A stretch of 64,000 bases of DNA, taken from Gammaproteobacteria bacterium. GTDB taxonomy: Bacteria; Pseudomonadota; Gammaproteobacteria; Steroidobacterales; GCA-2729495. Within the stretch, counting starts at the first letter, position 1. Every line of letters starts with the position of its first letter. The notes beneath the pieces are model-generated. The model ran no database searches. It worked only from the letters and a program-made list of their open reading frames with translations, and was not told the origin of the DNA. Of this stretch, positions 1-38,829 are shown in pieces. The stretch is taken from positions 120,170-184,169 of the forward strand of contig JASLMV010000001.1 in assembly GCA_030746435.1 (NCBI GenBank). Reading direction: 5' to 3'. A program made the position numbers and the translations under genes.

Positions 1-2
1 AG

Positions 3-3000
3 CCCGTTGATCGCGGCGACACGATACCGTTGTCGTTTGCACAACAGCGACTCTGGTTCCTCGATCAACTCGAGGGGGTCAGTTCGACTTATAACGTGCC
101 GCTCGCACTCGCCCTGGACGGCCCCCTCAACATCGACGCTTTGCAAGCAACAGTCGATACACTCGTCGCCCGGCATGAATCGCTGCGCACCAGCTTTGCG
201 ACGACACAGGGTGTGGCCATGCAGGTCATCAGCGACGAGTTGCACGTACCCGTCGATGTTGTCGACCTGAAGGATGCAAATGATGCCGAAGTCCAGGTGC
301 GCCTCGAAGAACTCGCGCAGACACCGTTCAACCTGTCGCGGGATGCGCTGCTCAGGGTGCATGTACTGCAGTCGGGCAAGGACCGGCAAATCCTGCTGCT
401 GGTTATGCATCACATCGTTTCCGATGGCTGGTCACTCGGGATACTGGCACGGGAACTGGCAGCGCTTTATGCCGGGCACTGTGGCGGCATGGCGGCCGAA
501 TTACCCGACCTGCCCGATCTGCCGATACAGTATGCGGATTTTGCGATCTGGCAGCGTGGCTGGCTGGCCGGCGAAGAACTGCGCCGGCAACTGAGTTACT
601 GGGAAGAACAGCTCGACGATGCGCCCGCACTGCTCGCTTTGCCGACCGACCGGCCGCGCCAGTCCGTACAGACTTTTAACGGCGCTCATATCAACCTGAC
701 GCTTAGCCGCGAACTCGGGGACCGTATACGCGAGCTGGCCGGCGCCGAAGATGCAACATTGTTTATGACGCTGCTCGCTGCATTCAACACCCTGCTTGCC
801 CGATACACAGGCACCGACGATATTGTCGTGGGTACACCCATCGCCGGCCGCAACCGCACCGAAATCGAAGGGCTCGTCGGCTTTTTCGTCAACACGCTTG
901 CCATGCGCACCGACATGAGCGGCGATCCGGACTTCATCGAAGTGCTGCGGCGGGTCAGGCGAACGGCACTGGGCGCCTATGCGCATCAGGAAATACCGTT
1001 CGAGAAACTGGTGGAAGAACTGCAACCCGACCGCGACACCAGCCATCCGCCGTTGTTCCAGGTTCTGTTCGTACTGCAGGAAAACCTTTCCGACCATATC
1101 GCCTTCCATGAACTCGAGGTCACACCGCTCGACTTCGAACTCGGCAGTTCCAAGTTCGATTTATCGCTCTTCATGGTGGAGTTTCCCGAAGGCCTGACTG
1201 CGTCGATCGAGTACAACACCGACCTCTTCGATGCCGCGACCATTGAACGCCTGTTACAACATTTCGAAACACTGCTGCGTGCGATTATTGCCAACCCTGC
1301 ACAACCGATTACCCAGTTGCCGCTACTGACTAGCGCCGAACGAAAGCTTGTAATCAGGGACTTCAATGCGACACACCTGGCTACGCAGACTATCAGCGTG
1401 CATGGGCTTGTAGAACAGCAGGCCGAACGGACACCGGATTCTCCAGCGCTCTGCTTCGGTGAAGCGTCACTGACTTACCGCGAACTGAACGAACGCGCCA
1501 ACCGTCTTGCACGACACCTGGCAGCTAACGGGGCAGTTCCCGGAACGCTGGTCGGCATATGCGCCGGGCGCGGTATTGACACGGCCGTCAGTGTGCTCGC
1601 CGTACTCAAATCGGGCACCGCCTACGTGCCGATCGACCCGAATTACCCGGGCGAGCGCGTGCAGTACATGCTGGAAGATTCGCAGGCACCGGTATTGATC
1701 ACCGAATCGGGGCTGGCCGCAACGCTGCCCGAACACAAAGCTACAACGGTATGCATCGATCAGTTCGACTGGACATCGGGTGATGCCGCGAACCCGGGTG
1801 AACTCGGCGGCGAGTCCGTTTATGCGATCTACACCTCGGGTTCCACAGGTCGTCCCAAAGGCGTCGAGCTGACCCATGCCGGGTTGTCTAACCTGATCCA
1901 GTGGCAGAACTGCCAGCGCGGACTCGACAGCCCTGCGCGTACCCTGCAGTTCGCGTCTTTGAGTTTCGATGTCAGCTTCCAGGAACTGTTTACGACCTGG
2001 GCACAGGGGGGCACTGTCGTGCTCATCGACGAGGAGCTGCGCCGCGACCTGGCAGGCCTGGCCCGATTCATCGCCACAGACAACATCGAACGCGTTTACA
2101 TGCCCTTCGCGGCATTACAACCGCTCGCGGAATGCGTAACCGGAGATTCGGGCCTCGAGTTTGCAGTACGCGATGTGATCGTAGCGGGCGAACAGTTGCA
2201 GATCACTCCGACGGTACGCGCGATGTTCGCGACACTCAACAATGCGCGGCTGCATAACCACTACGGTCCTTCCGAGGCACACGTGGTGACGGCCTATACG
2301 CTCGGCGACGACATCGATAAGTGGATGCCTCTGCCACCGATCGGCAAACCCGTCGCTAACACACAGGCTTATATCCTCGATTCGAACTGCGAGCCCGTGC
2401 CCGTCGGCGTACCGGGTGAACTGTTCCTTGGCGGTGTGCAGGTCGGGCGCGGTTATATCCACCGCAAGGCGCTGACCGCCGAGAAATTCCTGCCGGATCC
2501 CTTTGTCGAGAATACCGGCAGCAAGCTCGCGCGCATGTACCGGACCGGCGACCGCGTACGTTACCTGCCGGACGGCAACATCGAATACCTCGGCCGCACC
2601 GACGACCAGGTCAAGTGGCGTGGCTTCCGCATCGAGCCGGGCGAGATCGAGGCAACCCTGAACGAGCACCCAAGTGTGCAGCAGGCTGCAGTCATGCTGC
2701 GCGAAGACAACCCAGGCGACAAACGGCTGGTCGCGTACCTCGTTGCGGCCGAGGATGAAGTTACAGACACCGGCGCGGTGCGCGACTGGCTGCGTGAACA
2801 GGTACCCGATTACATGGTGCCCTCGGCTTTCGTAACCCTCGACTCGATGCCGCTGACCCCGAGCGGCAAAGTCGCGCGCCGCAAATTACCGGTTCCCGAT
2901 TATGCGGACGCGGCACAGCTATACGTTGCCCCGCGCACACCCGTCGAAGAAGCACTCGTCCAGATCTGGAGCGATGTGCTGGACGTCGGCCAGGTCGGGA

Positions 3001-3150
3001 TACACGATGACTTTTTCGAGCTGGGCGGGCACTCATTGCTTGCGACGCAATTGCTGTCCCGGGTACGCGATGCACTCGATGTCGAACTGCCTCTGGTCAC
3101 GCTCTTCAATCATCCGAGCATCGCGGCACTCGCAGCCGACGTCGAGCAGG
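3..3150 (+). other. NRPS1 module 1 (C-A-T), proline-type
   Basis: The C domain is of LCL type (SFAQQRLWFLDQ start, HHIVSDG at 408-428). The A-domain core TSGSTGRPKG lies near 1830-1862. Pocket residues aligned by eye to GrsA positions 235-517 read DVQYIAHVVK, very close to the established proline code DVQLIAHVVK. The carrier motif LGGHSL has its serine codon at 3033. The incoming upstream residue would be in L form because no epimerase precedes this C domain in view. Confidence 0.85.
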
Positions 3151-6100
3151 CCAAAGGTGCGACGCCGCTGGAGGCGATCAAAGTCTGCGACCGGTCGCAA
3201 CCGCTGCCCCTTTCATTCGCCCAGCAACGCCTCTGGTTCCTCGATCAGCTCGAGCCGGGCAACCCTGTTTACAACCTGCCCTGGGCTATGCGCCTCGACG
3301 GACCGCTGAACATGCAAGCGCTGCAGGCGGCGATCGACGACCTGATTAACAGACACGACACGTTGCGCACACTGTTCTCGGTCACGATGGGCAAACCGCA
3401 GCAATGCGTACTCGACAAGGTTTCGGTTCCGGTGGAAAGCGTCGATGCGACAGGCGATGACGAAGCGGCGATCGAAAAGCGCCTGCACAACCTGTCCCGC
3501 ATCCCCTTCGGCCTCGGCCAGACGCCGCTGATGCGGGTACACGTCCTGCATACCGGTAACCAGCAACATATTATTTTGCTGGTCCTGCACCACATCGTGT
3601 CAGACGGCTGGTCGCTGGGCGTCCTTTACCAGGAGCTGGTCAAACTTTATGCCGGCCACTGTCTCGGTGAACCCGTCACGCTGCCTGCCCTGCCGGTGCA
3701 GTACGTCGATTACTCGGTCTGGCAGCACGATTGGTTCCGCAGCGCCGAACAGCAACGCCAACTCGACTACTGGACGTGGCGTCTTGAAGACGCACCGGCC
3801 ATACTGGACCTGCCGACCGACCGTCCGCGTGGCTCGACGCAAACCTACAACGGTTCCTTTATCGAACAGGTGCTACCCGACGCGATACATTCGGGTTTGA
3901 AAGATACTGCGCGGCAGGAAAATAGCACGCTGTTCATGGTTTGCCTCGCCGCCTTTAATGTCCTGATGGCGCGTTACTCCGGGCAGAAGGATATCTGTAT
4001 CGGCACACCGGTTGCCGGTCGCCGGCACAGCGAACTGGAAGGCCTGATCGGCTTCTTTATCAACACACTGGTCATGCGCAACACGCTCGAAGGCGATCCC
4101 GATTTTGCCGAGTTTCTTGCGAGCGTGAAAGATACTGCGCTCGAGGCATATGCACACCAGGAACTGCCGTTCGAGAAACTTGTAGATGAAATACAGCCGG
4201 TACGCGATATGAGCCATGCACCGCTGTTCCAGGTTGCGTTCATCATGCAAAACACGCCCTGGGACCAGGGCGCGAGCCTGCACGATCTGGAAATCAGCCC
4301 GATCGAGCTCGACTACGGCGTAGCGAAGTTCGACCTGAGTCTCGTCATGGCAGAACGTCGCGAAGGCTTGCTCGTGCACTTGGAGTACAACACGGACCTT
4401 TATGACCGGAGCACGATCGACAAATTGCTCGGACATTTCGAGACGCTATTGCTAGCTATAGTCAGCGATAAGCACATGCCGGTTGCGGAACTGCCTCTGC
4501 TGACAGCATCCGAGCGTGAGCAGATGCTATTTGAGTGGAACGATACCCGGGTGCCGTTTGCCGATGACACCTGCATACACACGCTGATAGAACGCAGGAC
4601 CGCGGAACAGCCCGACGCGCCGGCAATACTCTTCCGCGACGAAGTTATCAGCTTTGCGGAACTCAACCGGCGTGCTAACCAGGTCGCCCATTACCTGATC
4701 GGCCACGGCACGGATCCGGACACTATTGTCGGTCTGTGTGTAGAGCGGTCCGTGAACCTGGTTACGGGACTGCTGGGCATCATGAAAGCCGGTGCTGCTT
4801 ACGTACCCCTCGACCCCAATTACCCGAGCGAAAGACTGGAATGGATGCTGGAAGATTCCGGCGCGCCGTTACTGATCACCCAGGCGGCTTTACTCGACCA
4901 GTTGCCGCACACGGATGCCAGGACCATTTGTCTGGATCTGGACTGGCCGGAAATCGCATCGCATGCTGACGGCAATCCCGAAAGTCAGGCCGGTCCGGAG
5001 GACCTCGCTTACGTTATTTACACCTCCGGCTCTACGGGTAAACCCAAGGGCGTGATGATCAGGCATAAAGGCGTGTGTAACCTGGCAGATGCCCAGGCCC
5101 GCGCCTTCGGCCTCGGCCCCAAAGATCGCATGCTGCAGTTCGCGTCGATCAGTTTCGATGCATCCATATTCGAGATCGTGATGGGCCTGCAGGTCGGTGC
5201 CGCCATGGTGCTGGCACCGCAGGACGAGCTGCTGCCCGGCAAACCACTACTGCAAACCCTCGATGACAAGAAGGTAACCGCGGTGACGTTGCCGCCGACG
5301 GCGCTCAGCCAGTTACCCGCGGCAGAACTGCCGCTACTGCAGACCGTCACCGTGGCGGGTGAAGCCTGCTCTCCGGAACTCGTCGAGCAGTGGGGCGTTA
5401 ACCGCCGCTTCTTCAACCTTTACGGCCCGACCGAATCCACCGTCTGGGCAAGTTTTGCCCGCTGTAAACCGGGCGATACGGTCACGATCGGTAAACCGAT
5501 TACCAATGCACGGCTGTATGTGCTCGATGAGAACCTGCAGCCCGTACCGGTGGGTGTCGCCGGCGAACTTTGTATCGGCGGTGAAGGGCTGGCGCGCGGT
5601 TACCTGAACCGGGAGGAGCTGAGTGCCGAAAAATTCCGTGCCGATCCTTTCCGGGACGAGCCCGATGCACGGATCTACCTTACCGGCGACCGGGTGCGGT
5701 TCCTGCCCGACGGTAATATCGACTTCCTGGGCCGCATCGACCACCAGGTCAAGGTTCGCGGTTTCCGGATCGAACTCGGCGAAATTGAGACCACGCTTTC
5801 CGCGCGCGAAGACGTGCGCGAAGCCGTCGTCCTTGCGCGCGGCGATGGCCTGCAGAATGAGCGCCTGGTCGCTTACATCATTCCACAGGGAGGGTCGCAA
5901 CTGTCGCTCGGTGAATTGCGCGCACACCTGAAAGGCAGCCTGCCCGAATTCATGATCCCGGCCGCGTTTGTCGTGCTCAATGAATTCCCGCTCACGCCGA
6001 ACGGCAAGGTCGACCGCGACGCCCTGCCGGAACCTGACGACAAACGCCTGGCGCTCGAGGTCGAGTACGTCGCGCCACGCGACCATGCGGAACGCGTGCT

Positions 6101-9100
6101 TGCGGCGATATGGAAAGACCTGCTCAATGTCGAGCAGGTCGGAATCCATGACAATTTCTTCGAGCTTGGCGGAGACTCGATACTGAGCATCCAGATCATC
6201 GCCCGCGCCGGCCAGGAAGATCTCCGGCTGACCCCGAAACAGCTGTTCGAACATCAGACCATCTCCGAACTGGCAGCGACCGCGGGCACGGATCGCATCA
6301 TTACAGCAGACCAGGGCAACATTGCCGGCACCCTGCCCCTGACGCCGATCCAGAGCTGGTTCGCGGAACGCGGGCTCATACAGGAATACCACTTCAATCA
6401 ATCGCAACTGTTCGATTGTGCGACCGAGATGGACGGCAGACTACTGGAACAGGCCTTCCAGGCGGTGCTCATGCACCACGATGCGTTACGTATGCGGGTT
6501 ACGCGGGCCTCGGGCGACAGGGAATTACAGCAGGCCCCGGACAGCCCGGGCGAAATATTGCGCACGATCAGTGTTGAGGCGCTGAGTGGGCCGCAACAGG
6601 CGGAACATATGTTACGGCTGTCGAATGCACTGCAGGCGAACTTTGACCTGGCTAATGGTCCTCTTATCAAAGCCCTGCTCATGCAGCGCGAACCCGGTGT
6701 GCCGGACCGGCTGCTGATCATCGTACATCACGTCGCTATCGACTGGGTCTCGTGGAACATCTTGCTCGAAGACCTGCAAACTGCCTATCGGCAACTGCTC
6801 GCCGGCCAGGCAGTCGAGTTGCCTCTTAAAACAAGCTCGTATATGGCCTGGTCGGAACGGCTGCAGGTCTATGCAGACAGCGATGCGGCAACCAGCGAGG
6901 CGCAATACTGGCTCAGCCTGCCGTGGAACGGACTAAAAGCTTTACCGCAGGACAATACGGCGGGCGCCAACATCGAATCTTCGACCAGGGATGTAACGCT
7001 CTGGTTGTCACAGGATGAAACCACTCAGCTATTGAAGGACATCCCGCGACTCTGGCGCACGCAGATTAACGACGTATTGCTGACTGCATTAACGCGTGCT
7101 GTCAAACAATGGTCGGGTAGCTCAAGCATAGCGGTTAACCTCGAAGGTCACGGCCGCGAAGACCTGTTCGACGATATCAACCTCTCCCGCACTGTCGGGT
7201 GGCTCACTACGCTTTATCCGCAACTGCTGACCCTGGATGACAACAACCCCGGCGAGAACCTGAAAGCGATCAGGCAGCAGTTACAGGAAGTACCCAACAG
7301 GGGTATCGGTTACGGGATACTCCGCTACCTCGGCCCCGCGCAGACTCGTGATGCACTTGCAGCGCTGCCTGTTCCTGAAATAGGCTTTAACTATCTCGGC
7401 CAACTGGACCAGGTAGCCGGCACGAACGGGCCGTTGCAACCCTGTTTCGACGCCCGCGGGACGGAACTCGGGCCGGCCGATGGACGTCCGCACCTGGTCG
7501 ACTTCGCCATCGCCGTTACCGGCGGCCGCCTGCAGCTCTCGGTCCTGTACAGCGAAAACCGCTACAAGGCAGAGACCGTCGAAAGGCTGGCGAACCGGCT
7601 TCTCGATGAACTGCGGGGACTCATAAGCCATTGCCTGAGCAGCACAGCGATGGCATGGACGCCAGCAGACTTCCCCCTGGCGCAGCTCACGCAAACCGAA
7701 CTCGACCAGCTGCTGGCCGACGATCCTGCCGCAGACGACCTGTATGGCGTCACATCCCTGCAGCACGGCATGCTGTTTCACAGCCTGTTCACCGGCGAAC
7801 ACGATGTTTACTTCGCACGCTTCCGCTGGCGCCTCGAAGGGGCGATCGATATAGCCGCATTCGAACGGGCGTGGCAGCAGGTTATCGATCGCCATACCAG
7901 CCTGCGCACGAGTTTCCACTGGGAAGGCCTGGGCGAACCGGTCCAGATCGTCCACCACGACGTTAAGGCGCACCTGGAAACCGAAGACTGGGAAGGCGAT
8001 ACCGAGGCCACACAGGAACAGAAACTGGATGCTTTCCTTGCAGCCGATCAGGCCCGGCGATTCGACTTCACGGACCCACCACTTATGCGGCTGACGCTGA
8101 TACGCCTGAATGCCGAAGACCATCACTTTATCTGGAGTTTCCACCACGCGATTATCGACGGCTGGTCGGTCCCGCTCGTGCTTAAAGAAGTGTTTGCCGT
8201 TTACGATGCTGAGCGCAATCTGACAACTATCGACCTGGAGCCGCCACGGCCGTTCAGCGATTACATAGACTGGCTCGGGCGCCAGGATAAAACAGCCGCC
8301 GAGGGTTTCTGGCGCGGCCTGCTCACGGGCTTCAGCGCACCGACGGCATTGCCGGGCGCGCGCGTGCAACAACTCGCCTTAACCAGCACGCCTGAATACG
8401 AAGAAATACTGGCTCGCATACCGGCCGGCACAGTCAGCAGCCTGCGCCGGCTGGCACAGGATTCACGCCTGACTCTTAACACCGTTATACAGGGCATCTG
8501 GGCCCTGCTGCTCAGCCGCTACAGCGGCGACAACGACGTCGTGTTCGGCGCAACCACGTCCGGCCGGCCCGCAACCATGCCGGGGGTCGGGTCGATGATC
8601 GGCCTGTTCCTGAATACCCTGCCCGTGCGCGCCCGCATCGAGCCGCAAGCGGAACTGCTGGCCTGGTTGAAAGAACTGCAGGTCGTACAGCTCGAGGTCC
8701 GCAACTACGAGTTCGCTTCGCTCGTCGAGGTTCAGGGCTGGAGTGACGTACCGCGCGGTACACCCATGTTCGGTTCGTTACTTGCGTTCGAAAACTATCC
8801 GGATATGGAGACTATGTGGACGGATACCGAAAGCATAACGATCCGTGAGGTCGATGGTTTCGACCGGACCAACTTCCCGCTCACGCTCAATGTCGCCGTG
8901 TTCGATGAGCTGCAGCTGCGTGTCGTTTTCGATACGCGGATGTTCGATACGGCAGGCATACAAAAACTCTGCAGCCACTTCGAAGCATTGCTCGACAGTA
9001 TTGTGGCTAAACCTGATCAGTTGCTGCGTGAGTTATCGCTGCTGACGAGCACCGAGCAGGAGGAACTGGCGCTGTGGAACCGGACCGGTCAGGACTACCC

Positions 9101-10913
9101 GCGAGCAGCCGCGATGCACACGGCTTTCGAGCAACAGGCGGCAGATAACCCGGATGCTATAGCAGCCGAGTGCGCCGGCGTGACGCTGACCTACGCCGAA
9201 CTCGACGGCCGGGCCAATCAACTCGCGCACCGCTTGCTGGAGCTCGGTGCCGGCAAGAACACGCCCGTAGGCCTGTGCATAGACCGCTCGACAGACATGC
9301 TGGTCGGGCTGCTCGGCATACTGAAGTCGGGCAGCGCCTACCTGCCGCTCGACCCCGACTTTCCGCCCGACCGCCTGCGTTACATGCTCGAGGATTCAGG
9401 CGCACCGGTACTCGTCTGCACCCGCGACAAGTCCGAACTGGCTGACAGGTTGCCGGTCACCCGCGTCTGCCTGGACGATGCCGGCAACGGCATCGAGGCA
9501 CAGCCCGTGACGGCTCCTGACACGGACATTGAGTCGAAACAACTCGCCTACGTGATCTACACATCGGGATCCACGGGCAAGCCAAAAGGCGTAACCATCG
9601 AACACCAGGCCGCGGTCAACTTCCTGCACAGCATGGCGCAGACACCGGGTGTCGACAGCACCGACCGCCTGCTTGCGGTCACCACACTGAGTTTCGATAT
9701 TTCGATACTCGAGCTTTTCACGCCACTCAGCGTTGGCGGAACGGTCGTCGTCGCGACGGCGGAAGTGCTCACCGACGGCTTTGCACTGGCGAGGCTGCTG
9801 GATGACGCACGAATAACGATTATGCAGGCGACGCCCGCTACCTGGCGCCTGTTGTTGGAAGCGAACTGGGAGCGCACGGAAAATATAAAGGTACTCTGCG
9901 GTGGCGAGGCGCTGGATCTGGAGCTGGCCCAGCGGCTCGCGTTACCCGGCTTCCCCGTATGGAATATGTACGGGCCGACCGAAACGACTATCTGGTCGTC
10001 GTGCGAAGCTATCGAGCACGATGCCGAGCGCATCAGTGTCGGCCGGCCGATTGCCAACACGACCCTGTACGTGCTCGATGAAGAAGGCCGGCAGGTGCCG
10101 GTCGGCGTGTCGGGAGAACTGTACATAGGCGGCGAAGGCGTCGCGCGCGGTTATCACGAACGTCCTGAACTGACGGCCGAAAGGTTCCTCCCGGACCCTT
10201 ACGGCGGTGCTACCGGTGCGCGAATGTACCGGACCGGCGACCTCGCCAGGTATCTGCCGGACGGACGTCTGATCGTCCTCGGCCGGACCGACTTCCAGGT
10301 AAAACTGCGCGGCTATCGCATAGAACTCGGCGAAATAGAAGCAGCGCTTGCCGAACTCGAAGCGATCACGCAGGCCGTGGTGATGCTGCGCGAAGACACG
10401 CCGGGCGATCAGCGCCTGGTCGGCTACATGACCGCCGTCGAAGGCTTTGAGCCTGACACGCAGGAATTATCGGCGTATCTGCGCCAATCCCTGCCGGACT
10501 ATATGGTCCCCGCGACCTATATGCGCCTCGAGCAGATACCGCTGACGCCGAACGGCAAAGTCGACCGCAAGCAACTGCCGGTGCCGGAATGGTCGGCTGA
10601 TCAGGAGTACGTCGCGCCCAGGAACGGGGTCGAGGAAGAACTCGCACAAATCTGGGCCGACATCCTGAGTGTCGAACAGGTAGGCATACACGATGACTTC
10701 TTCGCGCTGGGCGGACATTCGCTGATTGCGATGAAACTGGTTTCGCGCGTACTCGAATCCATGCGAGTCGAGTTACCGCTGGACCGCATTTTCGAATCGC
10801 CGACTATTGCCGGTCTCGCCGGTTCCGTGAGCGAATCACGCGAACGCGGAGAAGAAGTACCGGGAATCAAACGGATCGAACGATCGTCACGGCGCAGGCG
10901 CAAAAAGGACTGA
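3..10913 (+). CDS. Nonribosomal peptide synthetase, three visible modules (5' partial)
   Basis: A multimodular NRPS that activates amino acids as adenylates, tethers them to phosphopantetheine arms and condenses them in the cytoplasm. The reading frame is open to the left edge and the first residues (PVDRGDTIPLSFAQQRLWF) are the linker and start of a condensation domain that normally follows a carrier domain, so more of this protein lies upstream. Domain order is C-A-T, C-A-T-E, C-A-T. Carrier serines are encoded at 3033, 6177 and 10719; condensation HHxxxDG motifs at 408, 3588 and 8142. The C-terminus is a short basic tail (10840-10913) that may be a docking element, but that is inference. 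The next NRPS gene starts 11 bases after the stop, so the two are surely co-transcribed. Confidence 0.97.
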   Translation, partial: PVDRGDTIPLSFAQQRLWFLDQLEGVSSTYNVPLALALDGPLNIDALQATVDTLVARHESLRTSFATTQGVAMQVISDELHVPVDVVDLKDANDAEVQVRLEELAQTPFNLSRDALLRVHVLQSGKDRQILLLVMHHIVSDGWSLGILARELAALYAGHCGGMAAELPDLPDLPIQYADFAIWQRGWLAGEELRRQLSYWEEQLDDAPALLALPTDRPRQSVQTFNGAHINLTLSRELGDRIRELAGAEDATLFMTLLAAFNTLLARYTGTDDIVVGTPIAGRNRTEIEGLVGFFVNTLAMRTDMSGDPDFIEVLRRVRRTALGAYAHQEIPFEKLVEELQPDRDTSHPPLFQVLFVLQENLSDHIAFHELEVTPLDFELGSSKFDLSLFMVEFPEGLTASIEYNTDLFDAATIERLLQHFETLLRAIIANPAQPITQLPLLTSAERKLVIRDFNATHLATQTISVHGLVEQQAERTPDSPALCFGEASLTYRELNERANRLARHLAANGAVPGTLVGICAGRGIDTAVSVLAVLKSGTAYVPIDPNYPGERVQYMLEDSQAPVLITESGLAATLPEHKATTVCIDQFDWTSGDAANPGELGGESVYAIYTSGSTGRPKGVELTHAGLSNLIQWQNCQRGLDSPARTLQFASLSFDVSFQELFTTWAQGGTVVLIDEELRRDLAGLARFIATDNIERVYMPFAALQPLAECVTGDSGLEFAVRDVIVAGEQLQITPTVRAMFATLNNARLHNHYGPSEAHVVTAYTLGDDIDKWMPLPPIGKPVANTQAYILDSNCEPVPVGVPGELFLGGVQVGRGYIHRKALTAEKFLPDPFVENTGSKLARMYRTGDRVRYLPDGNIEYLGRTDDQVKWRGFRIEPGEIEATLNEHPSVQQAAVMLREDNPGDKRLVAYLVAAEDEVTDTGAVRDWLREQVPDYMVPSAFVTLDSMPLTPSGKVARRKLPVPDYADAAQLYVAPRTPVEEALVQIWSDVLDVGQVGIHDDFFELGGHSLLATQLLSRVRDALDVELPLVTLFNHPSIAALAADVEQAKGATPLEAIKVCDRSQPLPLSFAQQRLWFLDQLEPGNPVYNLPWAMRLDGPLNMQALQAAIDDLINRHDTLRTLFSVTMGKPQQCVLDKVSVPVESVDATGDDEAAIEKRLHNLSRIPFGLGQTPLMRVHVLHTGNQQHIILLVLHHIVSDGWSLGVLYQELVKLYAGHCLGEPVTLPALPVQYVDYSVWQHDWFRSAEQQRQLDYWTWRLEDAPAILDLPTDRPRGSTQTYNGSFIEQVLPDAIHSGLKDTARQENSTLFMVCLAAFNVLMARYSGQKDICIGTPVAGRRHSELEGLIGFFINTLVMRNTLEGDPDFAEFLASVKDTALEAYAHQELPFEKLVDEIQPVRDMSHAPLFQVAFIMQNTPWDQGASLHDLEISPIELDYGVAKFDLSLVMAERREGLLVHLEYNTDLYDRSTIDKLLGHFETLLLAIVSDKHMPVAELPLLTASEREQMLFEWNDTRVPFADDTCIHTLIERRTAEQPDAPAILFRDEVISFAELNRRANQVAHYLIGHGTDPDTIVGLCVERSVNLVTGLLGIMKAGAAYVPLDPNYPSERLEWMLEDSGAPLLITQAALLDQLPHTDARTICLDLDWPEIASHADGNPESQAGPEDLAYVIYTSGSTGKPKGVMIRHKGVCNLADAQARAFGLGPKDRMLQFASISFDASIFEIVMGLQVGAAMVLAPQDELLPGKPLLQTLDDKKVTAVTLPPTALSQLPAAELPLLQTVTVAGEACSPELVEQWGVNRRFFNLYGPTESTVWASFARCKPGDTVTIGKPITNARLYVLDENLQPVPVGVAGELCIGGEGLARGYLNREELSAEKFRADPFRDEPDARIYLTGDRVRFLPDGNIDFLGRIDHQVKVRGFRIELGEIETTLSAREDVREAVVLARGDGLQNERLVAYIIPQGGSQLSLGELRAHLKGSLPEFMIPAAFVVLNEFPLTPNGKVDRDALPEPDDKRLALEVEYVAPRDHAERVLAAIWKDLLNVEQVGIHDNFFELGGDSILSIQIIARAGQEDLRLTPKQLFEHQTISELAATAGTDRIITADQGNIAGTLPLTPIQSWFAERGLIQEYHFNQSQLFDCATEMDGRLLEQAFQAVLMHHDALRMRVTRASGDRELQQAPDSPGEILRTISVEALSGPQQAEHMLRLSNALQANFDLANGPLIKALLMQREPGVPDRLLIIVHHVAIDWVSWNILLEDLQTAYRQLLAGQAVELPLKTSSYMAWSERLQVYADSDAATSEAQYWLSLPWNGLKALPQDNTAGANIESSTRDVTLWLSQDETTQLLKDIPRLWRTQINDVLLTALTRAVKQWSGSSSIAVNLEGHGREDLFDDINLSRTVGWLTTLYPQLLTLDDNNPGENLKAIRQQLQEVPNRGIGYGILRYLGPAQTRDALAALPVPEIGFNYLGQLDQVAGTNGPLQPCFDARGTELGPADGRPHLVDFAIAVTGGRLQLSVLYSENRYKAETVERLANRLLDELRGLISHCLSSTAMAWTPADFPLAQLTQTELDQLLADDPAADDLYGVTSLQHGMLFHSLFTGEHDVYFARFRWRLEGAIDIAAFERAWQQVIDRHTSLRTSFHWEGLGEPVQIVHHDVKAHLETEDWEGDTEATQEQKLDAFLAADQARRFDFTDPPLMRLTLIRLNAEDHHFIWSFHHAIIDGWSVPLVLKEVFAVYDAERNLTTIDLEPPRPFSDYIDWLGRQDKTAAEGFWRGLLTGFSAPTALPGARVQQLALTSTPEYEEILARIPAGTVSSLRRLAQDSRLTLNTVIQGIWALLLSRYSGDNDVVFGATTSGRPATMPGVGSMIGLFLNTLPVRARIEPQAELLAWLKELQVVQLEVRNYEFASLVEVQGWSDVPRGTPMFGSLLAFENYPDMETMWTDTESITIREVDGFDRTNFPLTLNVAVFDELQLRVVFDTRMFDTAGIQKLCSHFEALLDSIVAKPDQLLRELSLLTSTEQEELALWNRTGQDYPRAAAMHTAFEQQAADNPDAIAAECAGVTLTYAELDGRANQLAHRLLELGAGKNTPVGLCIDRSTDMLVGLLGILKSGSAYLPLDPDFPPDRLRYMLEDSGAPVLVCTRDKSELADRLPVTRVCLDDAGNGIEAQPVTAPDTDIESKQLAYVIYTSGSTGKPKGVTIEHQAAVNFLHSMAQTPGVDSTDRLLAVTTLSFDISILELFTPLSVGGTVVVATAEVLTDGFALARLLDDARITIMQATPATWRLLLEANWERTENIKVLCGGEALDLELAQRLALPGFPVWNMYGPTETTIWSSCEAIEHDAERISVGRPIANTTLYVLDEEGRQVPVGVSGELYIGGEGVARGYHERPELTAERFLPDPYGGATGARMYRTGDLARYLPDGRLIVLGRTDFQVKLRGYRIELGEIEAALAELEAITQAVVMLREDTPGDQRLVGYMTAVEGFEPDTQELSAYLRQSLPDYMVPATYMRLEQIPLTPNGKVDRKQLPVPEWSADQEYVAPRNGVEEELAQIWADILSVEQVGIHDDFFALGGHSLIAMKLVSRVLESMRVELPLDRIFESPTIAGLAGSVSESRERGEEVPGIKRIERSSRRRRKKD
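3190..7660 (+). other. NRPS1 module 2 (C-A-T-E), D-configured unknown residue
   Basis: LCL condensation domain with HHIVSDG at 3588-3608, then an A domain with pocket residues DAFTTALVWK. The first four residues recall aromatic codes, but the rest do not match a code I know, so the substrate is left open. The carrier is LGGDS (serine at 6177), typical of carriers that feed an epimerase. The E domain spans about 6330-7650 with EGHGRE, RTVGW and NYLGQLD motifs. Its active-site motif reads HHVAIDW rather than the usual HHxxxDG. Confidence 0.8.
7660..10850 (+). other. NRPS1 module 3 (C-A-T), glycine predicted
   Basis: The C domain is of DCL type, as expected after an E domain: it opens with a SLQHGMLFHSLF motif and has HHAIIDG at 8142-8162. 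Pocket residues read DILQLGMIWK, one residue from the established glycine code DILQLGLIWK. Carrier serine at 10719 in LGGHSL. Confidence 0.85.
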
Positions 10914-10924
10914 ATGAATAAAAC

Positions 10925-13900
10925 ATGACCGAGCAACAGGACAAACCGTTGATGTCATCGCCTGGCAACCCGGATTCGGATTACGTCTTCGAAGCTACCG
11001 CTTCGTTTGCACAACAGCGCCTGTGGTTCCTGGACCAGCTCGAGCCGGGCAGCTCCGTTTATAACATCAGCTTCGCGATGCGCCTGCAGGGCGAACTCGA
11101 CCGCGGCGCATTACAGAGCGCTGTCGATACACTCGTTGCGCGTCATGAGTCCCTGCGTACGACTTTCGATACGGTGCACAAACAACCGGTACAGGTAATT
11201 GCGGAAGCGGCAAGCGTGCGCTTACAGGTCCACAATTGTGAAGGCGACAGTACCGAGGCCCGGGAAAAACGCCTGCGCGAGTTGGCGAACCAGCCCTTCG
11301 AGCTGCACCAGGGGCCGCTCCTGCGGGTCCATTTACTGGCAAACGGTGAAACTGAGCACCTGCTATTAATCGTTATCCACCACATCATTGCAGATGCGTG
11401 GTCGCTCGATGTGCTCTACCGGGAGCTGGTTATCGCTTACGAAGCAGCCCGCTCCGGAAAATCGCCGAACCTGGCGGACCTGCCGGTTCAGTACGCCGAC
11501 TACGCGGAATGGCAACAGGACTGGCTGAGCGGCGGCGAACTCGAGAAACAACTGGCGTACTGGCGTGAGCAACTCTCGAACGCGCCTGAGCTACTGGAGC
11601 TTCCGCTGGACCGCGCACGGCCACGCATACAAACGCACGCCGGCGCCACGCTGGAAAGACGACTCGGGGATTCGCTGGCCGAACAGGTCAGGCAACTCGC
11701 ACAGTCCCGGTCGTGCACGCTGTTTCATTTTTATCTCGCGGCATTCAGCGCATTGCTCGGCCGTTATGCCGCTACTGACGACGTAGTTGTTGGCACACCG
11801 ATCGCGGGCCGCCGGCGCACTGAACTCGAAGGCCTGATCGGTTTCTTCGTAAACACGCTGGGCATGCGCGCGGACCTCTCGGATGACCCCTCTTTTGGCA
11901 GGCTCCTGGAGCAATGTAAGCAAACCACGCTGGATGCCTTTGCACACCAGGAGCTGCCCTTCGAAAAACTGGTCGAAGAACTGCAGCCCGAACGTGCGAT
12001 GAGCCATTCACCCATCTTCCAGGTGATGTTCGTCCTGCACCACGCGGTCGGCAGCAGCCTGCCCTTCGGCAACCTCGATACCGAATCGCTGCTGCTCGAC
12101 TCGGGCACGGCGAAATTCGACCTGACGCTGTTCGTGACCGAAATGCAGGACGGTGTCTCGATACTCTTCGAATACAACACCGATTTGTTCGACGCTGCGA
12201 CGATAGAGCGGCTGCTGAACCACTTCGAAACGCTGCTGAAAGGCATCGTTGTGAGTCCGGATGTCCCGGTATCGAAGCTGGCATTGCTGGATGAAGCAGA
12301 AAGACAACATGTGCTGAACGACTTTAATGATTCAGCGATGCCTATTGCTGACCGCTTGGTACACCAACTCGTCGAAGACCAAGCCGAACAGCGGCCGGAC
12401 ACGCCGGCCGTCTGCTTCGGCGCAGCCTCTCTTTCTTATATAGAGCTGAACCAGCGTGCCAACCGCCTCGCCCGGGCACTTACCGCGGCCGGCGCCGGAC
12501 CGGGCAAGCTGGTAGCGATCTGCGCAGAAAGATCCGTCGAAATGGTCGTCGGTGTACTTGCTGTTCTCAAGGCAGGCAGCGCCTACGTGCCTGTCGACCC
12601 CCGTTACCCGGCAGAACGCATCCGCACCATGCTGGACGACAGCCGGGCACCGGTACTGTTAACGCAGTCGGCGCTCATTAGCGATCAGCCTGAACACTCG
12701 GCAAGGGTCATCGAACTCGATACCTTCGACTGGACGTCAGGTGATGATTCAAACCTCGACGTACAGGGCGAGTCGGTGTACGCCATCTACACGTCCGGTT
12801 CCACAGGTAAACCCAAAGGTGTGGAACTCACGCAGATGGGCCTTTCGAACCTGATCCAGTGGCAGTCGGCCCAACCGGGGCTGGATACACCTGCCCGCAC
12901 GCTGCAGTTCGCAAGCTTAAGTTTCGATGTCAGCTTCCAGGAACTTTTTACAACCTGGGCCCAGGGCGGCACGCTGGTACTGGTCACAGAAGACGAGCGC
13001 CACGATCTTAATGGTCTTGCGAAGTTCATCGCCCGCGACGGCATCGAACGCGTGTACTTACCCTTTGCAGCATTACAACCGCTTGCAGAAACAATCGCGG
13101 CGGATAACGGACTCTCGTTTGCAATTAAGGACGTGATCGTTGCCGGCGAGCAACTACAGATTACGCCGAGCGTGCGGGCGATGTTCGAGACGCTTGGCAA
13201 TGCACGGCTGCACAACCAGTACGGACCGTCCGAGACCCATGTGGTGACCGCCTACACTCTTGCAGGCAAGCCCGCTGAATGGATGGCCCTGCCGCCTATA
13301 GGCACGCCGGTAACCAATACCTGGGCGTATGCACTGGATAGAAACAAACAACCGGTTCCCGTCGGTGTGCCGGGCGAGCTGCATCTCAACGGCGTGCAGC
13401 TCGCAAAGGGATATCTCAACCGACCTGAATTAACGGCGGAAAGGTTTATTCCCAACCCCTTCGGCCCGGGCAGACTCTATTGCACCGGCGACCTGGTCCG
13501 TTATCTTGCAGACGGCAACCTCGAGTACCTCGGCCGCACCGATGACCAGGTCAAATGGCGGGGTTTCCGGATCGAGCCCGGCGAGATAGAAACCGCACTG
13601 GCCAACCACGCGAACGTGCAACAGGCCGCGGTACTCCTGCGCGAGGACACGCCGGGCGACAAGCGCCTGGTCGCTTATGTCGTCGGCGACGAACCTGATA
13701 CCGAGGCGCTGCGCTTACATCTCAAGGAACGTTTACCCGACTACATGGTGCCCTCGGTCATCCTGATCCTCGATGCCCTGCCGCTCACGCCCAGCGGCAA
13801 GGTTGCGCGGCGGAGTTTACCCGTACCCGACTACGCCGATGCCGCACAGGCCTATGTTGCCCCGCGCACACCGGTCGAGGAAGCGCTTGTGCAGATCTGG

Positions 13901-16900
13901 GCCGATATCCTCAACGTATCGCAGGTCGGCATCCACAACGACTTCTTCGCGCTCGGAGGTCACTCACTGCTGGCCACGCAACTCATCTCACGGGTGCGCG
14001 ACACGCTGAATATAGAAGTACCGCTCATAACACTCTTTAATTATCCGAACGTCAGTGAGTTTGCGCACGCTGTAGACAATGAAGGCGCTGCAGATATCGA
14101 TGCCGCAATAGCAGCCTGCGATCGCGACAGGCCGGTTCCGCTGTCTTTCGCCCAGCAACGCCTGTGGTTCCTGGACCAACTCGACCCCGGTAACCCGGCC
14201 TATAACTTCCCCGTCGCAGTAGAACTGAACGGTGAGCCGGACATCGATGCGTTGCAGGCGGCGCTGGCTGAACTCATGGCACGCCATGAAACCCTGCGCA
14301 CGGTCTTCGCAGACGCCGAAACCGGGGCCGAGCAGGTCATCAGGACTGCCGGGACTATCGATCTCGAGCAAAGTGACCTGAGTTCCGCGAGCCGCGACGA
14401 TGTGCTCGCCGAACTCACGCGCCTGTCGCAACTCCCCTTTAACCTGCAGGAAGGTCCGCTGCTGCGCGCACACCTGCTAAGGAGTTCCGCGAACCAGCAT
14501 TACCTCCTGCTGGTTTGCCACCACATCATCTCGGACGGCTGGTCGCTGAATATTCTTCTGAATGAACTGGCCGCCTGTTATCGAGGGCAGGGATCGCAAC
14601 TGCCCGCCATGGATATCCAGTACGCAGACTACGCGGTCTGGCAACACAACTGGCTCGGCGGCGAGGAGCTGAACCGCCAGGTCGAGTACTGGCGCGAACA
14701 GCTCGCCGATGCGCCGACGGTACTCGAGCTGCCGACCGACCGGCCACGCCCGCCGGAACAAAGTTACCACGGTGACAGCGTGCTGACCTGGCTGCGACCG
14801 GACCTGCACGACAGCCTGAAAAAGCTTGCCGCTGACGAGAACTGCACGTTGTTCATGGTTTTGCTCGCGGCTTTCGATACGCTGCTCGCAACCTATGGTT
14901 CGACAGAGCATATCGTCGTCGGCACACCCATAGCAGGCCGCAGGCGCACCGAACTCGAGGGCCTGATCGGGTTCCTGAGCAATACGCTGGCTATTCCTGC
15001 CAACCTCGAAAACGATCCCGACTTCCGCACCCTGTTGCAACAGGTTAAGGAAACCACGCTCGGCGCATATGCACACCAGGAACTACCGTTCGAGAAACTC
15101 GTGGAAGAGTTGCAACCCGAACGCGCGATGAGTCACTCGCCTGTTTTCCAGGTGATGTTCGTTTACCAGAACACGCCGCCGCTGAATACGGACTTTGGTG
15201 CTGTCTCTGCCCGCCCGGTCGGTTTCGAAATGGGTATTGCCAAGTTCGACCTGTTGCTCGAAATGGCGGAGTCGGATGAAGGCTTACGCGCGGGACTGCA
15301 GTACAACACGGACCTGTTTGACGGAGCGACGATCGAGCGGCTGCTGGACCACTTCGAGACCTTGCTTGCCGGGATCGTGGCGAGTCCGGACGTGCCGGTG
15401 TCGCAGCTGAGGCTGCTGGATGAAGTAGAAAGACAACATGTGCTGAAAGACTTTAATAAGAGTGCCATGGACGTGTCTGACCGCTTGGCCCATGAACTCG
15501 TAGAAGATATCGCCGCCCAGCAGCCGGACGCCGCTGCCGTCTGCTTCGGTGCAGTCACTCTTTTATATAAAGAGCTGAACGAGCGGGCCAACCGCCTCGC
15601 CCGGGCGCTCACCGCCGCCGGTGCAGGTCCGGGCAAGCTCGTGGCAATCTGTGCCGAGCGCGGTATCGAGACGGTGGTCGGGGTGCTGGCCGTGCTCAAG
15701 GCAGGCAGTGCCTACGTGCCCGTCGATCCCCGCTACCCTGCCGGGCGCATCCGGACCATGCTCGATGACTGCAAGGCACCGGTTTTACTGACCCAGTCAG
15801 CGCTGGTGAGCGAGCTTCCCGACCCTGCAGCCGAGCTCATCGAGCTCGATGCCTTCGACTGGGCATCCGGTGACGGCTCGAACCTCGATGTACAGGGCGA
15901 GTCGGTGTATGCGATCTACACCTCGGGGTCGACAGGTAAGCCGAAGGGCGTGGAGTTAACCCACGCCGGGCTGAGCAACCTGATCCAGTGGCAGGCAAGC
16001 CAGCCGGGACTGGATAGGCCGGCCCGCACGCTGCAGTTTGCATCATTAAGCTTCGATGTCTCGTTCCAGGAGCTCTTCACCACCTGGGCCGGCGGTGGCA
16101 CGCTGGTACTGGTTAGCGAAGACGAACGCCGCGATCTTGCAGGTCTGGCGAAGTTCATCGCTGCCGATGGCATCGAGCGTGTGTATTTACCCTTCGCAGC
16201 ACTGCAGCCACTGGCGGATGCCGTGGTGAACGAACCGGGGCTTAACTTCAGGGTGCGCGACGTGATCGTCGCCGGTGAGCAGTTACAGGTCACACCTGCC
16301 GTAAAAGCGATGTTCGAAACCCTGGGTGATGCGCGGCTGCACAACCAGTACGGCCCGTCCGAGACCCACGTGGTCACGGCCTATACCCTTGCAGGTCCGC
16401 CGGACAGCTGGCCGGCCCTGCCCCCGATCGGTACACCGGTTGCGAACACGCAGGTGTATGTACTGGATGCGAACTTAGAACCGGTCCCCGTGGGCGTGCC
16501 CGGTGAGCTTTACCTTGGTGGTGTGCAGGTGGCGAAAGGCTACGTGGGCAGACCTGAGCTTACCGTCGAGCGCTTCCTTGCAGACCCCTTTAACAAGGGT
16601 CGGGTGTACCGCACCGGCGACCGGGTCCGCTTTTTGCCCGACGGCACACTTGAGTACCTCGGGCGCACCGATGACCAGGTCAAGTGGCGGGGCTTCAGGA
16701 TCGAGCCCGGCGAGATCGAAACAGCATTGGCCGATCACGCCAGTGTCAGACAGGCGGCGGTGTTAATCAGGGAAGATAACCCCGGTGACAAGCGCCTGGT
16801 CGCCTACGTGGTGGGTGATGACCCGGATGCGGAAGCACTCAGGTTACATCTTAAAGAGCGCCTGCCCGATTACATGGTGCCGCAGGCTTTTGTTGTGCTG

Positions 16901-17280
16901 GATGCATTACCGCTCACGCCTTCGGGCAAGGTCGCGCGCCGCAGTTTACCGGTACCCGACTACGCCGATGCGGCAGATGCCTACGTCGCACCCCGCACCC
17001 CGGTCGAGGAAGCGCTCGTTACGATCTGGGCTGAGGTGCTCAACGTCGAACGCGTCGGTATCCACGATGACTTTTTTGCATTGGGCGGGCACTCGTTGCT
17101 GGCTACCCAGCTTATATCGCGGGTGCGCGACACGCTGAACACCGAACTTGCGCTGAAGTACATCTTCCGGAATACAACACCAGAGACTTTAGCCGCAGCA
17201 ATCGAAAGCCTGCAGATAGCCGGCTCAATGACGACAGCAGCACCCGCCGGTGATGCCGACGACAGGGAGGAGTTTCAGAT

Positions 17281-17284
<4 letters not shown>
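10925..17284 (+). CDS. Nonribosomal peptide synthetase, two modules
   Basis: A 2119-residue NRPS with domain order C-A-T-C-A-T and no epimerase or release domain. It receives the chain from the upstream synthetase and hands it to the six-module one. Condensation motifs are HHIIADA (11378-11398, residue 152 on) and HHIISDG (14519-14539, residue 1199 on); carrier serines are at residues 1014 and 2057. Both A domains have the same proline-type pocket with Gln at 322. The first 25 or so residues before SFAQQRLWF are short and polar with no recognised docking fold. No strong ribosome site precedes the ATG, so translation may depend on ribosomes finishing the upstream gene. Its stop overlaps the next start as ATGA. 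Confidence 0.97.
11000..14080 (+). other. NRPS2 module 1 (C-A-T), proline-type (Gln322)
   Basis: LCL condensation domain whose motif ends in Ala (HHIIADA) rather than Gly. Pocket residues read DVQYIAQVVK: proline-like but with Gln in place of His at position 322. Carrier serine codon at 13964. Proline or a proline analogue is the best guess; the changed residue keeps the exact substrate open. Confidence 0.75.
14130..17200 (+). other. NRPS2 module 2 (C-A-T), proline-type (Gln322)
   Basis: LCL condensation domain with HHIISDG at 14519. Pocket residues DVQYIAQVVK, identical to the preceding module. From about 15301 the DNA becomes nearly identical to module 3 of the next gene (from 26418). Carrier serine codon at 17093. 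The protein ends about 60 residues later with no release domain. Confidence 0.77.
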
Positions 17285-37829
<20,545 letters not shown>

Positions 37830-37833
<4 letters not shown>

Positions 37834-38681
37834 GGGCTGGCCGTCGAGCTACCGACAGAGCGATCGAGTATTTCAACAACCTGGCCCAGTGCCGGATCTT
37901 CCATCAGGTCCAGGTGTTCAACTGCCTGTGGAATACTGACCAGCGTTGCGCCCCCGTTCATCATGTATTGCCACGATTCAATCCAGGCACTTTTCTGCTC
38001 GTCGGTCAACGCTGCATAAATGAGCGTACCGTGGCAATCGAAGGGCTCATAGGCGTATGTCTGAATAACGGGCCGCAGGCACTTGATCAGTGCAAACCAG
38101 CGCAGCCCCTCCGGCAATCTCTTGTCCAGGGCTCGATAGAGTCTGGTCAGGAACTTGTCACGGTATTTTTTTACGCGTGCGGCCTGCGCACCAAACAGGT
38201 GGCAAAGATTGGCATTCAGTGTTTGTAAACGATTCTCGGATTCGATCAGGGCAGTCCAGTAACGCGAGACCCTGCGCTGATTTTTGGCCTGGCTACGGGC
38301 CTGCGCCTGTTCGGCGAGGCCGCCGATTGCAACCGTTGGCTCGACGAGTACCAGGTGACCGACCTCTTCTCCGGCGGCCTGCAACTGCCGGGTCATTTCG
38401 AATGCGATCATGCCGCCCGCCGAATAACCGCAGATATGGTAAGGCCCGCTCGGCTGCACCGACTTTACGGCATCGATATAAACAGCCGCGTACTGCTCAA
38501 TGGTCGAGGGCAATTCAAGGCACTTGCGGCCCAGATCCGGGTGATAAAGCAAACTGACGCCGTACAAAGGCCGGTCTGCACGAATACGAAAAGCAATCTG
38601 CAGCGGTTCTCCGTGCACACAAAATAAGGGCGGTTTATCGCCCCTGGTCCGGATTGGCATTAGCGCCTGATTTTGAGACAT
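37830..38681 (-). CDS. Stand-alone thioesterase, likely NRPS release or editing enzyme
   Basis: A 283-residue alpha/beta-hydrolase of the NRPS thioesterase family. It shows the family order: CVHGEP oxyanion region (residues 21-27), nucleophile in GYSAGG (Ser87), and a late catalytic His in AVEHLDL (His256). The acid residue was not fixed. I chose the ATG at 38681 because homology begins just after it; the frame extends upstream but that part looks like a non-protein shadow. The gene is convergent with the six-module NRPS and the two stop codons share TTAA (37830-37833). Since the last NRPS module lacks a thioesterase, this enzyme may release the peptide in trans. It could instead be a type II editing thioesterase. 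Confidence 0.9.
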
Positions 38682-38829
38682 GCGGTATTTCCAGCATTCC
38701 TGCTGCGCTCTGCAAAGCGCCGGTCGAGACGATACTACCCAATCACTATATGGGCAACAATGCCACTCAGGAAAAAGAAGCTGCTTTAGTGGACAATAAA
38801 AAGGCGGCAACAAAGCAAGGAGCAAGCAC

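What the first reader, a model, noticed from the sequence alone, without database searches (positions are those of the whole stretch)
1..37833. Proline-dominated NRPS assembly line of at least 11 modules
Seen: three consecutive synthetase genes, 11 modules, two epimerases, six A domains with DVQYIA(H/Q)VVK pockets. Established: DVQLIAHVVK is a proline code, DVWHLSLIDK serine, DILQLGLIWK glycine, DLFNNALTYK alanine. Inferred product core: Pro, D-X, Gly, Pro*, Pro*, D-Ser, X, Pro*, Pro, Ala, Pro. I do not recognise a known peptide with this order, and more residues lie upstream. No MbtH-like, phosphopantetheinyl transferase or peptide-tailoring gene is seen between the NRPS genes and the right edge.
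Basis: partly seen in the sequence, partly recalled or inferred. Interest (0 to 1): 0.8.

Follow-up and report, generated by a model that had tools for sequence, protein, structure and literature searches.

The report
Proline-rich peptide assembly line with hydroxylases
An uncultivated bacterium with a small genome carries an 18-step enzyme assembly line for a proline-rich peptide of unknown structure, and the enzymes that most likely decorate the prolines belong to the same family that hydroxylates collagen.

Summary
The line begins 25 kb left of the window: six genes, 62.8 kb, 18 modules on one contig of a 2.43-Mb genome. Inferred order: X, thiazole (Cys), NMe-Gly, Pro, Ser, Gly, NMe-Ala, Pro, D-Z, Gly, Pro, Pro, D-Ser, U, Pro, Pro, Ala, Pro (X, Z, U unknown). 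Such lines occur in six of 40 held genomes of the family, this one included. The first half is conserved; the proline tail was seen only here and arose by module copying. (1) A thioesterase homologous to a relative's fused terminal thioesterase sits on the opposite strand, tail to tail with the last synthetase gene; in relative G018 the fused copy has lost its serine and an intact separate copy follows. (2) Beside the first gene lies a 2-oxoglutarate oxygenase of the peptidyl prolyl-4-hydroxylase family, found in exactly the six line-bearing genomes, three copies each, and in none of the other 34. Best explanation: a hydroxyproline-rich, N-methylated, thiazole-bearing peptide released by a thioesterase in trans. 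Product and hydroxylation are inferred, not shown. New variant of a known kind; interest 0.6.

The parts
3..10913 (+). 3' part of synthetase gene N4 (whole gene C11:109345-131082, 7245 aa): modules 8 (Pro), 9 (unassigned, followed by E) and 10 (Gly); modules 5-7 lie left of the window
6324..7688 (+). Epimerization domain after module 9
   Evidence: own-HMM parse and Pfam Condensation match; HHxxxD kept
7746..9068 (+). Condensation domain of module 10, in the clade of C domains that follow E (DCL type)
   Evidence: C tree, 8-row clade 100/99
10925..17284 (+). Synthetase gene N5, modules 11 and 12, both Pro (DVQYIAQVVK)
17281..37833 (+). Synthetase gene N6, modules 13 (D-Ser, with E), 14 (DAMHVGGLAK, unassigned), 15 Pro, 16 Pro, 17 Ala, 18 Pro; ends in a carrier domain without thioesterase
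20653..21996 (+). Epimerization domain after module 13
25240..28308 (+). Module 15: its C domain pairs with that of a Gly module of relative G002; its A domain is sister to that of module 12 of the same line
   Evidence: trees; nucleotide identity C 60%, linker 55%, A core 85%, A sub 84%, carrier 69%; change-point at module base 1166, 0 of 200 block shuffles
28372..37434 (+). Modules 16-18 (C and A parts): the three C domains form one 100/100 clade found only here; 16 and 18 are alike through C and A, module 17 has an Ala A domain
37507..37734 (+). Terminal carrier domain; its best matches are the terminal carriers of four relatives' lines
   Evidence: 65.0-75.6 bits against 57.8 for the next best of 78 carriers
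37830..38681 (-). Stand-alone thioesterase (283 aa from the probable start, residue 72 of a 354-aa ORF that reaches 38894), GYSAGG motif, tail to tail with N6
   Evidence: PF00975 E 1.2e-20; 34% identity to the fused terminal thioesterase of G003
38830..40757 (+). Boundary: methionine aminotransferase (38830-39978) and amidohydrolase (39966-40757), a housekeeping pair, not tailoring
   Evidence: NCBIfam PRK09082 and PRK10438 above their cut-offs; the amidohydrolase is in 26 of 40 family genomes

Best explanation
These are the right-hand 11 modules of an 18-module nonribosomal peptide synthetase line (genes N1-N6, C11:95193-158002). N1 (A-T-Cy-A-T-Ox) loads an unusual starter and makes a thiazole from cysteine. 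N2-N6 add NMe-Gly, Pro, Ser, Gly, NMe-Ala, Pro, D-Z, Gly, Pro, Pro, D-Ser, U, Pro, Pro, Ala, Pro. The chain on the last carrier is released by a stand-alone thioesterase acting in trans. Some of the prolines are hydroxylated by three peptidyl prolyl-4-hydroxylase-type oxygenases (one at C11:93970-94764, - strand, 428 bp before N1; two at C32:117120-118850), giving a hydroxyproline-rich peptide. Shown: anatomy, orthologous lines, loss of the nucleophile from the fused thioesterase in G018 and G011, intact oxygenase motifs and fold, co-occurrence in the family. Inferred: residues, hydroxylation, and release in trans.
For: Anatomy. Thiazole: Cy domain, Cys code DLYNMSLIWK (meaning recalled) and nitroreductase-type Ox domain (PF00881, E 3e-19), kept in all five lines read; Cy, Cys-type A and Ox also stand in a row in synthetases on Bradyrhizobium, Paenibacillus, Agrobacterium, Halotia and Brasilonema plasmids. 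Oxygenase: nine solved relatives by sequence, eight named prolyl 4-hydroxylase or procollagen-proline dioxygenase and one 'Predicted protein' (3gze), which titles as an algal prolyl 4-hydroxylase with a (Ser-Pro)5 peptide; Foldseek ranks 1-38 of the 50 rows shown are prolyl 4-hydroxylases, first 3gze, E 6.4e-16. It occurs in 6 of 40 family genomes at E <= 1e-10, the same six that match the thiazole-oxidase unit above 350 bits, three copies each; 15 of 18 keep HxD...H...K. A methyltransferase upstream of N1 has the same 6-of-40 pattern. Controls: the amidohydrolase beside N6 is in 26 of 40, the MFS gene in 4 of 40, two of them without the line. Thioesterase.
Against: The six line-bearing genomes fall in two genera, so the co-occurrence rests on few independent events (in genus g1 three have both and two lack both, one of the two only 87% complete). 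Two of the three oxygenases of this genome lie on another contig, and in G002 none lies in the flank fetched beside N1. No hydroxylation target was shown; solved bacterial relatives include ones that act on EF-Tu (titles). The oxygenase model is moderate (mean pLDDT 70, six sequences). One oxygenase paralog is degenerate in all three genomes of genus g8. The thioesterase family is not exclusive to the line: G003 has a second, separate homologue on C135 among genes that look, by eye, like an exopolysaccharide locus, and G047 has a weak partial match. The genome is a multi-contig assembly without a 16S match, so an assembly error in the thioesterase orientation cannot be excluded, although G002 shows the same tail-to-tail arrangement. 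In G002 the N6 counterpart is on another contig and N5 is followed directly by the amidohydrolase, so its membership of that line is assumed.
Confidence: 0.6

Rival explanations
1. An ordinary orphan synthetase line; the prolyl-hydroxylase-type enzymes act on another target (a protein or surface polymer) and are merely inherited together with the line in two lineages.
For: Only two genera carry both; two of three copies in this genome are far from the line; some solved bacterial relatives modify EF-Tu (titles).
Against: In genus g8 all three copies stand in tandem (beside N1 in G018 and G011; in G023 on a short contig), and in G000 and G003 one stands beside N1; within genus g1 the two genomes without the line also lack all copies.
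Confidence: 0.25
2. The DVQ-type A domains load a ready-made proline analogue (4-hydroxyproline, methylproline or pipecolate) and the oxygenases act on free amino acid.
For: Two relatives carry an odd variant at module 12 (DVQWCSEVVK).
Against: The oxygenase is closest in sequence and fold to peptidyl enzymes, with a (Ser-Pro)5 complex ranked first; codes match listed Pro codes.
Confidence: 0.1
3. The line is decaying or misassembled in this genome: the terminal thioesterase was cut off and inverted, so the product is no longer released.
For: N6 ends without thioesterase and its close homologue is on the opposite strand; only one other PF00975 match exists in the genome.
Against: All six genes are open; the stand-alone thioesterase keeps GYSAGG; G002 has the same tail-to-tail arrangement and G018 has a separate intact copy next to a fused one without serine.
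Confidence: 0.05

Closest known systems
Type I modular nonribosomal peptide synthetases with proline modules (tyrocidine/gramicidin type, recalled; LpmD/PstD codes seen in a passage of PMC9113097)
   Same: C-A-T modules, DVQ-type Pro codes, E followed by a distinct clade of condensation domains, TubC_N docking domain (N2 tested)
   Different: 18 modules over six genes in a 2.4-Mb genome, seven Pro, a thiazole unit at the start, no fused thioesterase, no MbtH match in the genome
Peptidyl prolyl 4-hydroxylases (algal P4H 3gze/2jig, Bacillus P4H 5iax/3itq, chlorella virus 5c5t, human C-P4H-II 7zsc)
   Same: Sequence family, fold, HxD...H...K motif
   Different: Co-inherited, three per genome, with a nonribosomal assembly line
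Natural A-domain exchange in synthetases (PMC8097286, abstract and passages; PMC7486941, abstract)
   Same: A domains change while C domains keep their place
   Different: PMC8097286 reports exchanges mostly inside A core with the C-A linker and A sub kept; here A sub goes with A core (84% and 85%), and the identity jump begins about 47 residues before the end of C. The 96-base linker itself is only 55% alike, so the left limit is uncertain
Separate release enzymes acting in trans, e.g. SurE of surugamide (recalled)
   Same: Offloading enzyme encoded apart from the last synthetase
   Different: SurE has a penicillin-binding-protein fold (recalled); this one matches PF00975 and is homologous to a fused terminal domain

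Membership tests
Type I modular NRPS | Repeated C-A-T modules with HHxxxD, A-domain motifs and carrier serine | tested here: met
   all C and E domains of N2-N6 keep HHxxxD; the second carrier of N1 reads GATS instead of GGHS/GGDS and keeps the serine
Type I modular NRPS | Terminal release domain on the last module | tested here: not met
   N6 ends 32 residues after the carrier; a separate PF00975 gene follows on the other strand
Type I modular NRPS | Product matches the module order | not testable with these tools
   needs chemistry
Thiazole-forming Cy-A-T-Ox unit | Cy domain (DxxxxD), Cys-type A domain, nitroreductase-type oxidase | tested here: met
   code meaning recalled
Syringopeptin/tolaasin-type lipopeptide line (recalled) | Starter condensation domain taking a fatty acid | tested here: not met
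   N1 starts with an A domain; no condensation domain precedes it
Peptidyl prolyl 4-hydroxylase | HxD...H iron triad and 2-oxoglutarate lysine | tested here: met
   15 of 18 proteins, all three of this genome
Peptidyl prolyl 4-hydroxylase | P4H fold | tested here: met
   G003 orthologue: Foldseek ranks 1-38 of 50 shown are P4H chains; mean pLDDT 70
Peptidyl prolyl 4-hydroxylase | Converts peptidyl proline to 4-hydroxyproline | not testable with these tools
   needs assay
Trans-acting penicillin-binding-protein type offloading enzyme (SurE, recalled) | Beta-lactamase/PBP fold | tested here: not met
   matches PF00975 thioesterase, no PBP family among its four Pfam matches

The most novel reading that the evidence does not exclude
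A nonribosomal counterpart of collagen and plant hydroxyproline-rich glycoproteins: an assembly line makes a proline-rich peptide whose prolines are then hydroxylated by a dedicated set of peptidyl prolyl-4-hydroxylases, and release is by a thioesterase that has moved from the last module to a gene of its own while the old fused copy decays.
Probability: 0.45. Interest if true: 0.72.

Novelty: new variant of a known kind. Interest (0 to 1): 0.6.

Why it matters
If right, an enzyme family known for modifying ribosomal proteins (collagen, cell-wall proteins, EF-Tu) has been recruited to a nonribosomal peptide, in an uncultivated gammaproteobacterial family with small genomes. The orthologous lines (15, 17, 18 and 18 modules, the first two pieced together from several contigs) are a natural series of length and residue changes behind a fixed start, useful for testing exchange-unit rules. 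The fused thioesterase without serine next to an intact separate one gives a snapshot of release moving from cis to trans.

Tried and rejected
A literature search with six accession or bin names found 0 papers; Woeseiaceae plus NRPS gave three papers judged unrelated from the listing; an oxygen-minimum-zone search gave 0; UBA10353 plus NRPS gave two, seen as listing only; a search for stand-alone thioesterases acting in trans gave 0.

Met-salvage aminotransferase and amidohydrolase as tailoring genes: rejected. MFS gene window 40754-42007 as dedicated exporter: not supported, 4 of 40 genomes at E <= 1e-60, two of them without the line, and four of the six line-bearing genomes lack it at that threshold. 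Inverted repeats as a trace of inversion of the thioesterase: 11 pairs of 9-13 bases; one 12-base pair (37597-37608 and 39129-39140, 92%) lies outside both ends of the gene, too short to count.

Starter substrate: unresolved. The four plasmid A domains that I fetched for it (of 20 records listed) are Thr-type by code and 47-49% identical, and the starter clade joins the Thr-type domains of the relatives with 100/99; but position 235 is Gly instead of Asp in all five lines, so a Thr-like acid without a free alpha-amine is only a guess. Codes DAFTTALVWK and DAMHVGGLAK: 0 papers. Codes for Gly, Ser, Ala, Cys, Thr and Val are recalled; one search found no paper holding two of six such codes. NRPS plus prolyl hydroxylase in print: two searches, 1 and 2 papers holding all terms, none on this by listing; other wording was not searched.

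Limits of my own analyses: change-points that no shuffle reached (0 of 200) also occur for module pairs 4/8, 8/11 and 6/10, with smaller jumps, because A domains of like substrate are more alike than their C domains; the copy claim for 12 to 15 rests mainly on the trees and on the size of the jump. C domains of positions 6, 8 and 9 group within genus g1 but not across both genera. TE tree: only the pair without serine is resolved. Row G018_13 in the trees comes from contig C187, which one search shows is probably another gene (71% to the G023 counterpart against 95% for the true N6 start); it supports no claim made here. The module count of G011 (14) is short by a contig gap.

Full report
What is there. 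The window is bases 120170-184169 of contig C11 (282,734 bases) of a 2.43-Mb genome in 38 contigs, 96.8% complete. The neighbouring stretches show that the assembly line starts 25 kb to the left. Six + strand genes follow one another, three of the five junctions overlapping by four bases: N1 95193-101108 (1971 aa), N2 101105-105721, N3 105718-109098, N4 109345-131082 (7245 aa), N5 131094-137453 and N6 137450-158002 (6850 aa). Domain models built from the genome's own domains give 18 modules: N1 A-T-Cy-A-T-Ox; N2 C-A-MT-T; N3 C-A-T; N4 six modules with MT in the third and E after the fifth; N5 two; N6 six with E after the first. Pfam supports the two A, two carrier, condensation-type and nitroreductase-type domains of N1, and the methyltransferase and TubC_N docking domain of N2.

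Codes. Read from an alignment at the classical positions (the code-to-residue table is recalled apart from Pro): 1 GFWSVSTGQK (unknown), 2 DLYNMSLIWK (Cys), 3 DILQLGMIWK (Gly, MT), 4 DVQYVAQVVK (Pro), 5 DVWHISLIDK (Ser), 6 Gly, 7 DLYNNALTYK (Ala, MT), 8 DVQYIAHVVK (Pro), 9 DAFTTALVWK (unknown, E), 10 Gly, 11 and 12 Pro, 13 Ser (E), 14 DAMHVGGLAK (unknown), 15 Pro, 16 Pro, 17 Ala, 18 Pro. Seven of 18 are Pro. PMC9113097 lists DVQYIAHVVK (LpmD) and DVQYVAHVVK (PstD) as Pro (one passage). With a Cy domain, Cys code and oxidase in one gene, a thiazole is the natural reading; Cy, Cys-type A and Ox also stand in a row in five plasmid-borne synthetases of other bacteria.

Relatives. Of the 40 held genomes of the family (own genome included), six have a match above 350 bits to the T-Ox part of N1: three of five in the same genus g1 (G000, G002, G003) and three of three in genus g8 (G011, G018, G023); three more have weak matches. 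A scan of genome contigs named five of them as MAGs filed under Gammaproteobacteria or Chromatiales. In the five lines read, modules 1-6 and 9 keep the same kind of code (at most two of ten positions differ), with methyltransferase domains in 3 and 7 and E after 9. Other positions differ: module 7 Ala, Thr or Ser; 8 Pro or Thr; 10 Gly, Ser or Ala (for G011 the Ala module lies on contig C39). The tails differ most: G003 has D-Ser, U, Gly, Gly, Gly, Val-like (18 modules); G002 D-Ser, U, Gly, U, Val-like (17, if the two genes on C152 continue the line); genus g8 Ala, Gly, U (15, pieced together from G018 and G023). The tail Pro-Pro-Ala-Pro was seen only in this genome.

How the tail arose. In a tree of 85 C, Cy and E domains, most C domains group by position in the line (positions 3, 4, 5, 7, 10, 11 and 12 over all five genomes; 13 and 14 over the three of genus g1; 6, 8 and 9 only within genus g1), while in a tree of 81 A domains they group by substrate. 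Within this genome the Pro A domains of modules 11, 12 and 15 form a 100/99 clade, with 12 and 15 sisters, but the C domain of module 15 pairs with that of G002 module 15, a Gly module (100/99). Nucleotide identity of modules 12 and 15 goes from 56% to 82% at module base 1166, about 47 residues before the end of C (0 of 200 block shuffles); pairs 11/12 and 11/15 break at 1174 and 1162. By domain, 12/15 are 60% alike in C, 55% in the 96-base linker, 85% in A core, 84% in A sub and 69% in the carrier. So the A part of module 12 was most likely copied into module 15, with an uncertain left limit. Other pairs (4/8, 8/11, 6/10) also show change-points that no shuffle reached, with smaller jumps, so the trees carry the argument. 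The C domains of modules 16-18 are one 100/100 clade; 16 and 18 are alike through C, linker and A (69-82%) but not in the carrier (49%), and the carrier of 18 is closest to the terminal carriers of four relatives' lines. The tail was thus extended in front of an old terminal carrier. Exchange of A domains under fixed C domains is known (PMC8097286, abstract and passages; PMC7486941, abstract); taking A sub along departs from the main pattern described in PMC8097286.

Release. N6 of this genome stops 32 residues after its carrier. The gene at 37830-38894 on the - strand, probably starting at 38681, matches PF00975 thioesterase with 34% identity, E 5e-52, to the fused terminal thioesterase of G003. 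G002 also has a separate copy tail to tail with its last synthetase. In G018 and G011 a fused domain is present but has Gly where the others have the nucleophile (AVGFAA, ATGFAA against GYSAGG); in G018 an intact separate copy (GFSVGG) follows on the same strand, and the contig of G011 ends within such a copy; G003 has a cysteine (GYCLGG). Only one other PF00975 match exists in this genome, on C35. G003 has a further separate homologue in an unrelated-looking locus. I infer release in trans.

Tailoring. 428 bp upstream of N1, on the - strand (C11:93970-94764, 264 aa; the searches used residues 1-259), is a 2OG-Fe(II) oxygenase (PF13640). Nine solved relatives were found by sequence: eight named prolyl 4-hydroxylase or procollagen-proline dioxygenase and one (3gze) so titled. 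A model of the G003 orthologue (mean pLDDT 70, pTM 0.72) finds prolyl 4-hydroxylases at Foldseek ranks 1-38 of 50 shown, first the algal enzyme with a (Ser-Pro)5 peptide; rank 39 is PolD. Over the 40 family genomes at E <= 1e-10, the oxygenase is found in exactly the six line-bearing genomes, three copies each, and in none of the 34 others. The chance of two 6-of-40 sets coinciding at random is 2.6e-7, but the six genomes are related, so this is not a probability for the hypothesis. Within genus g1 three genomes have both and two have neither. 15 of 18 proteins keep HxD...H...K; the exceptions are one paralog in each genome of g8. In g8 the three stand in tandem (beside N1 in G018 and G011); in this genome two are a pair on C32. 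A methyltransferase at C11:90808-91578 shows the same six of 40; the thioesterase shows the six plus one weak partial match. As controls, the amidohydrolase right of N6 is in 26 of 40 and the MFS gene in 4 of 40, only two of which carry the line.

Verdict. The hydroxyproline-rich product is my best inference (about 0.6 for the whole explanation, 0.45 for the bold form). Two literature searches combining nonribosomal peptide terms with prolyl hydroxylase terms gave one and two papers, none on this by listing; absence from print is claimed no further than that.

Noticed in passing
right of the window: C11:190969-206900 (- strand; L004/L005): A second, five-module line (starter GFWSVSTGRK, VDWVISTDAK beta-alanine-like by recall, DIESVGTIVK, DAMHVGGLAK twice), without a thioesterase match. 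Matching pieces stand in G001, G002, G004, G011 and G018, so also in two congeners that lack the big line. The odd Gly-235 starter was readable in G000, G011 and G018 only.
   Followed up: partly
C11:91584-94232 (L001:11584-14232, - strand): Protein with GH123-N-like and laminin-G/pentaxin-like domains next to the oxygenase, conserved beside the line in G002, G011 and G018.
   Followed up: no
C11:89747-90742 (L001:9747-10742, - strand): Family 2 glycosyltransferase adjacent to the line-specific methyltransferase, also next to it in G003, G011 and G018.
   Followed up: no
L022:6737-8371 (G011): Radical SAM gene with a B12-binding match between N4 and N5 in G011; not found on the other line-bearing contigs read at that point.
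   Followed up: no
G018 L016:4089-4490; G002 C76:35536-35898: 6-pyruvoyl-tetrahydropterin-synthase-like gene immediately before N1 in two relatives.
   Followed up: no
C11:211478-213853 (L006:1478-3853): 791-aa protein with two radical SAM stretches and a CofH C-terminal region, suggesting coenzyme F420 synthesis.
   Followed up: no
window 48466-54448: Aldehyde dehydrogenase among three MFS transporter genes, conserved in order in G002.
   Followed up: no
G003 C135:8213-9061 (L080); G018 C190:838-3432 (L081): Homologue of the line's thioesterase (GFSSG) in a locus that looks by eye like exopolysaccharide genes; G018 C190 has an A-T-TE protein of the same family.
   Followed up: partly
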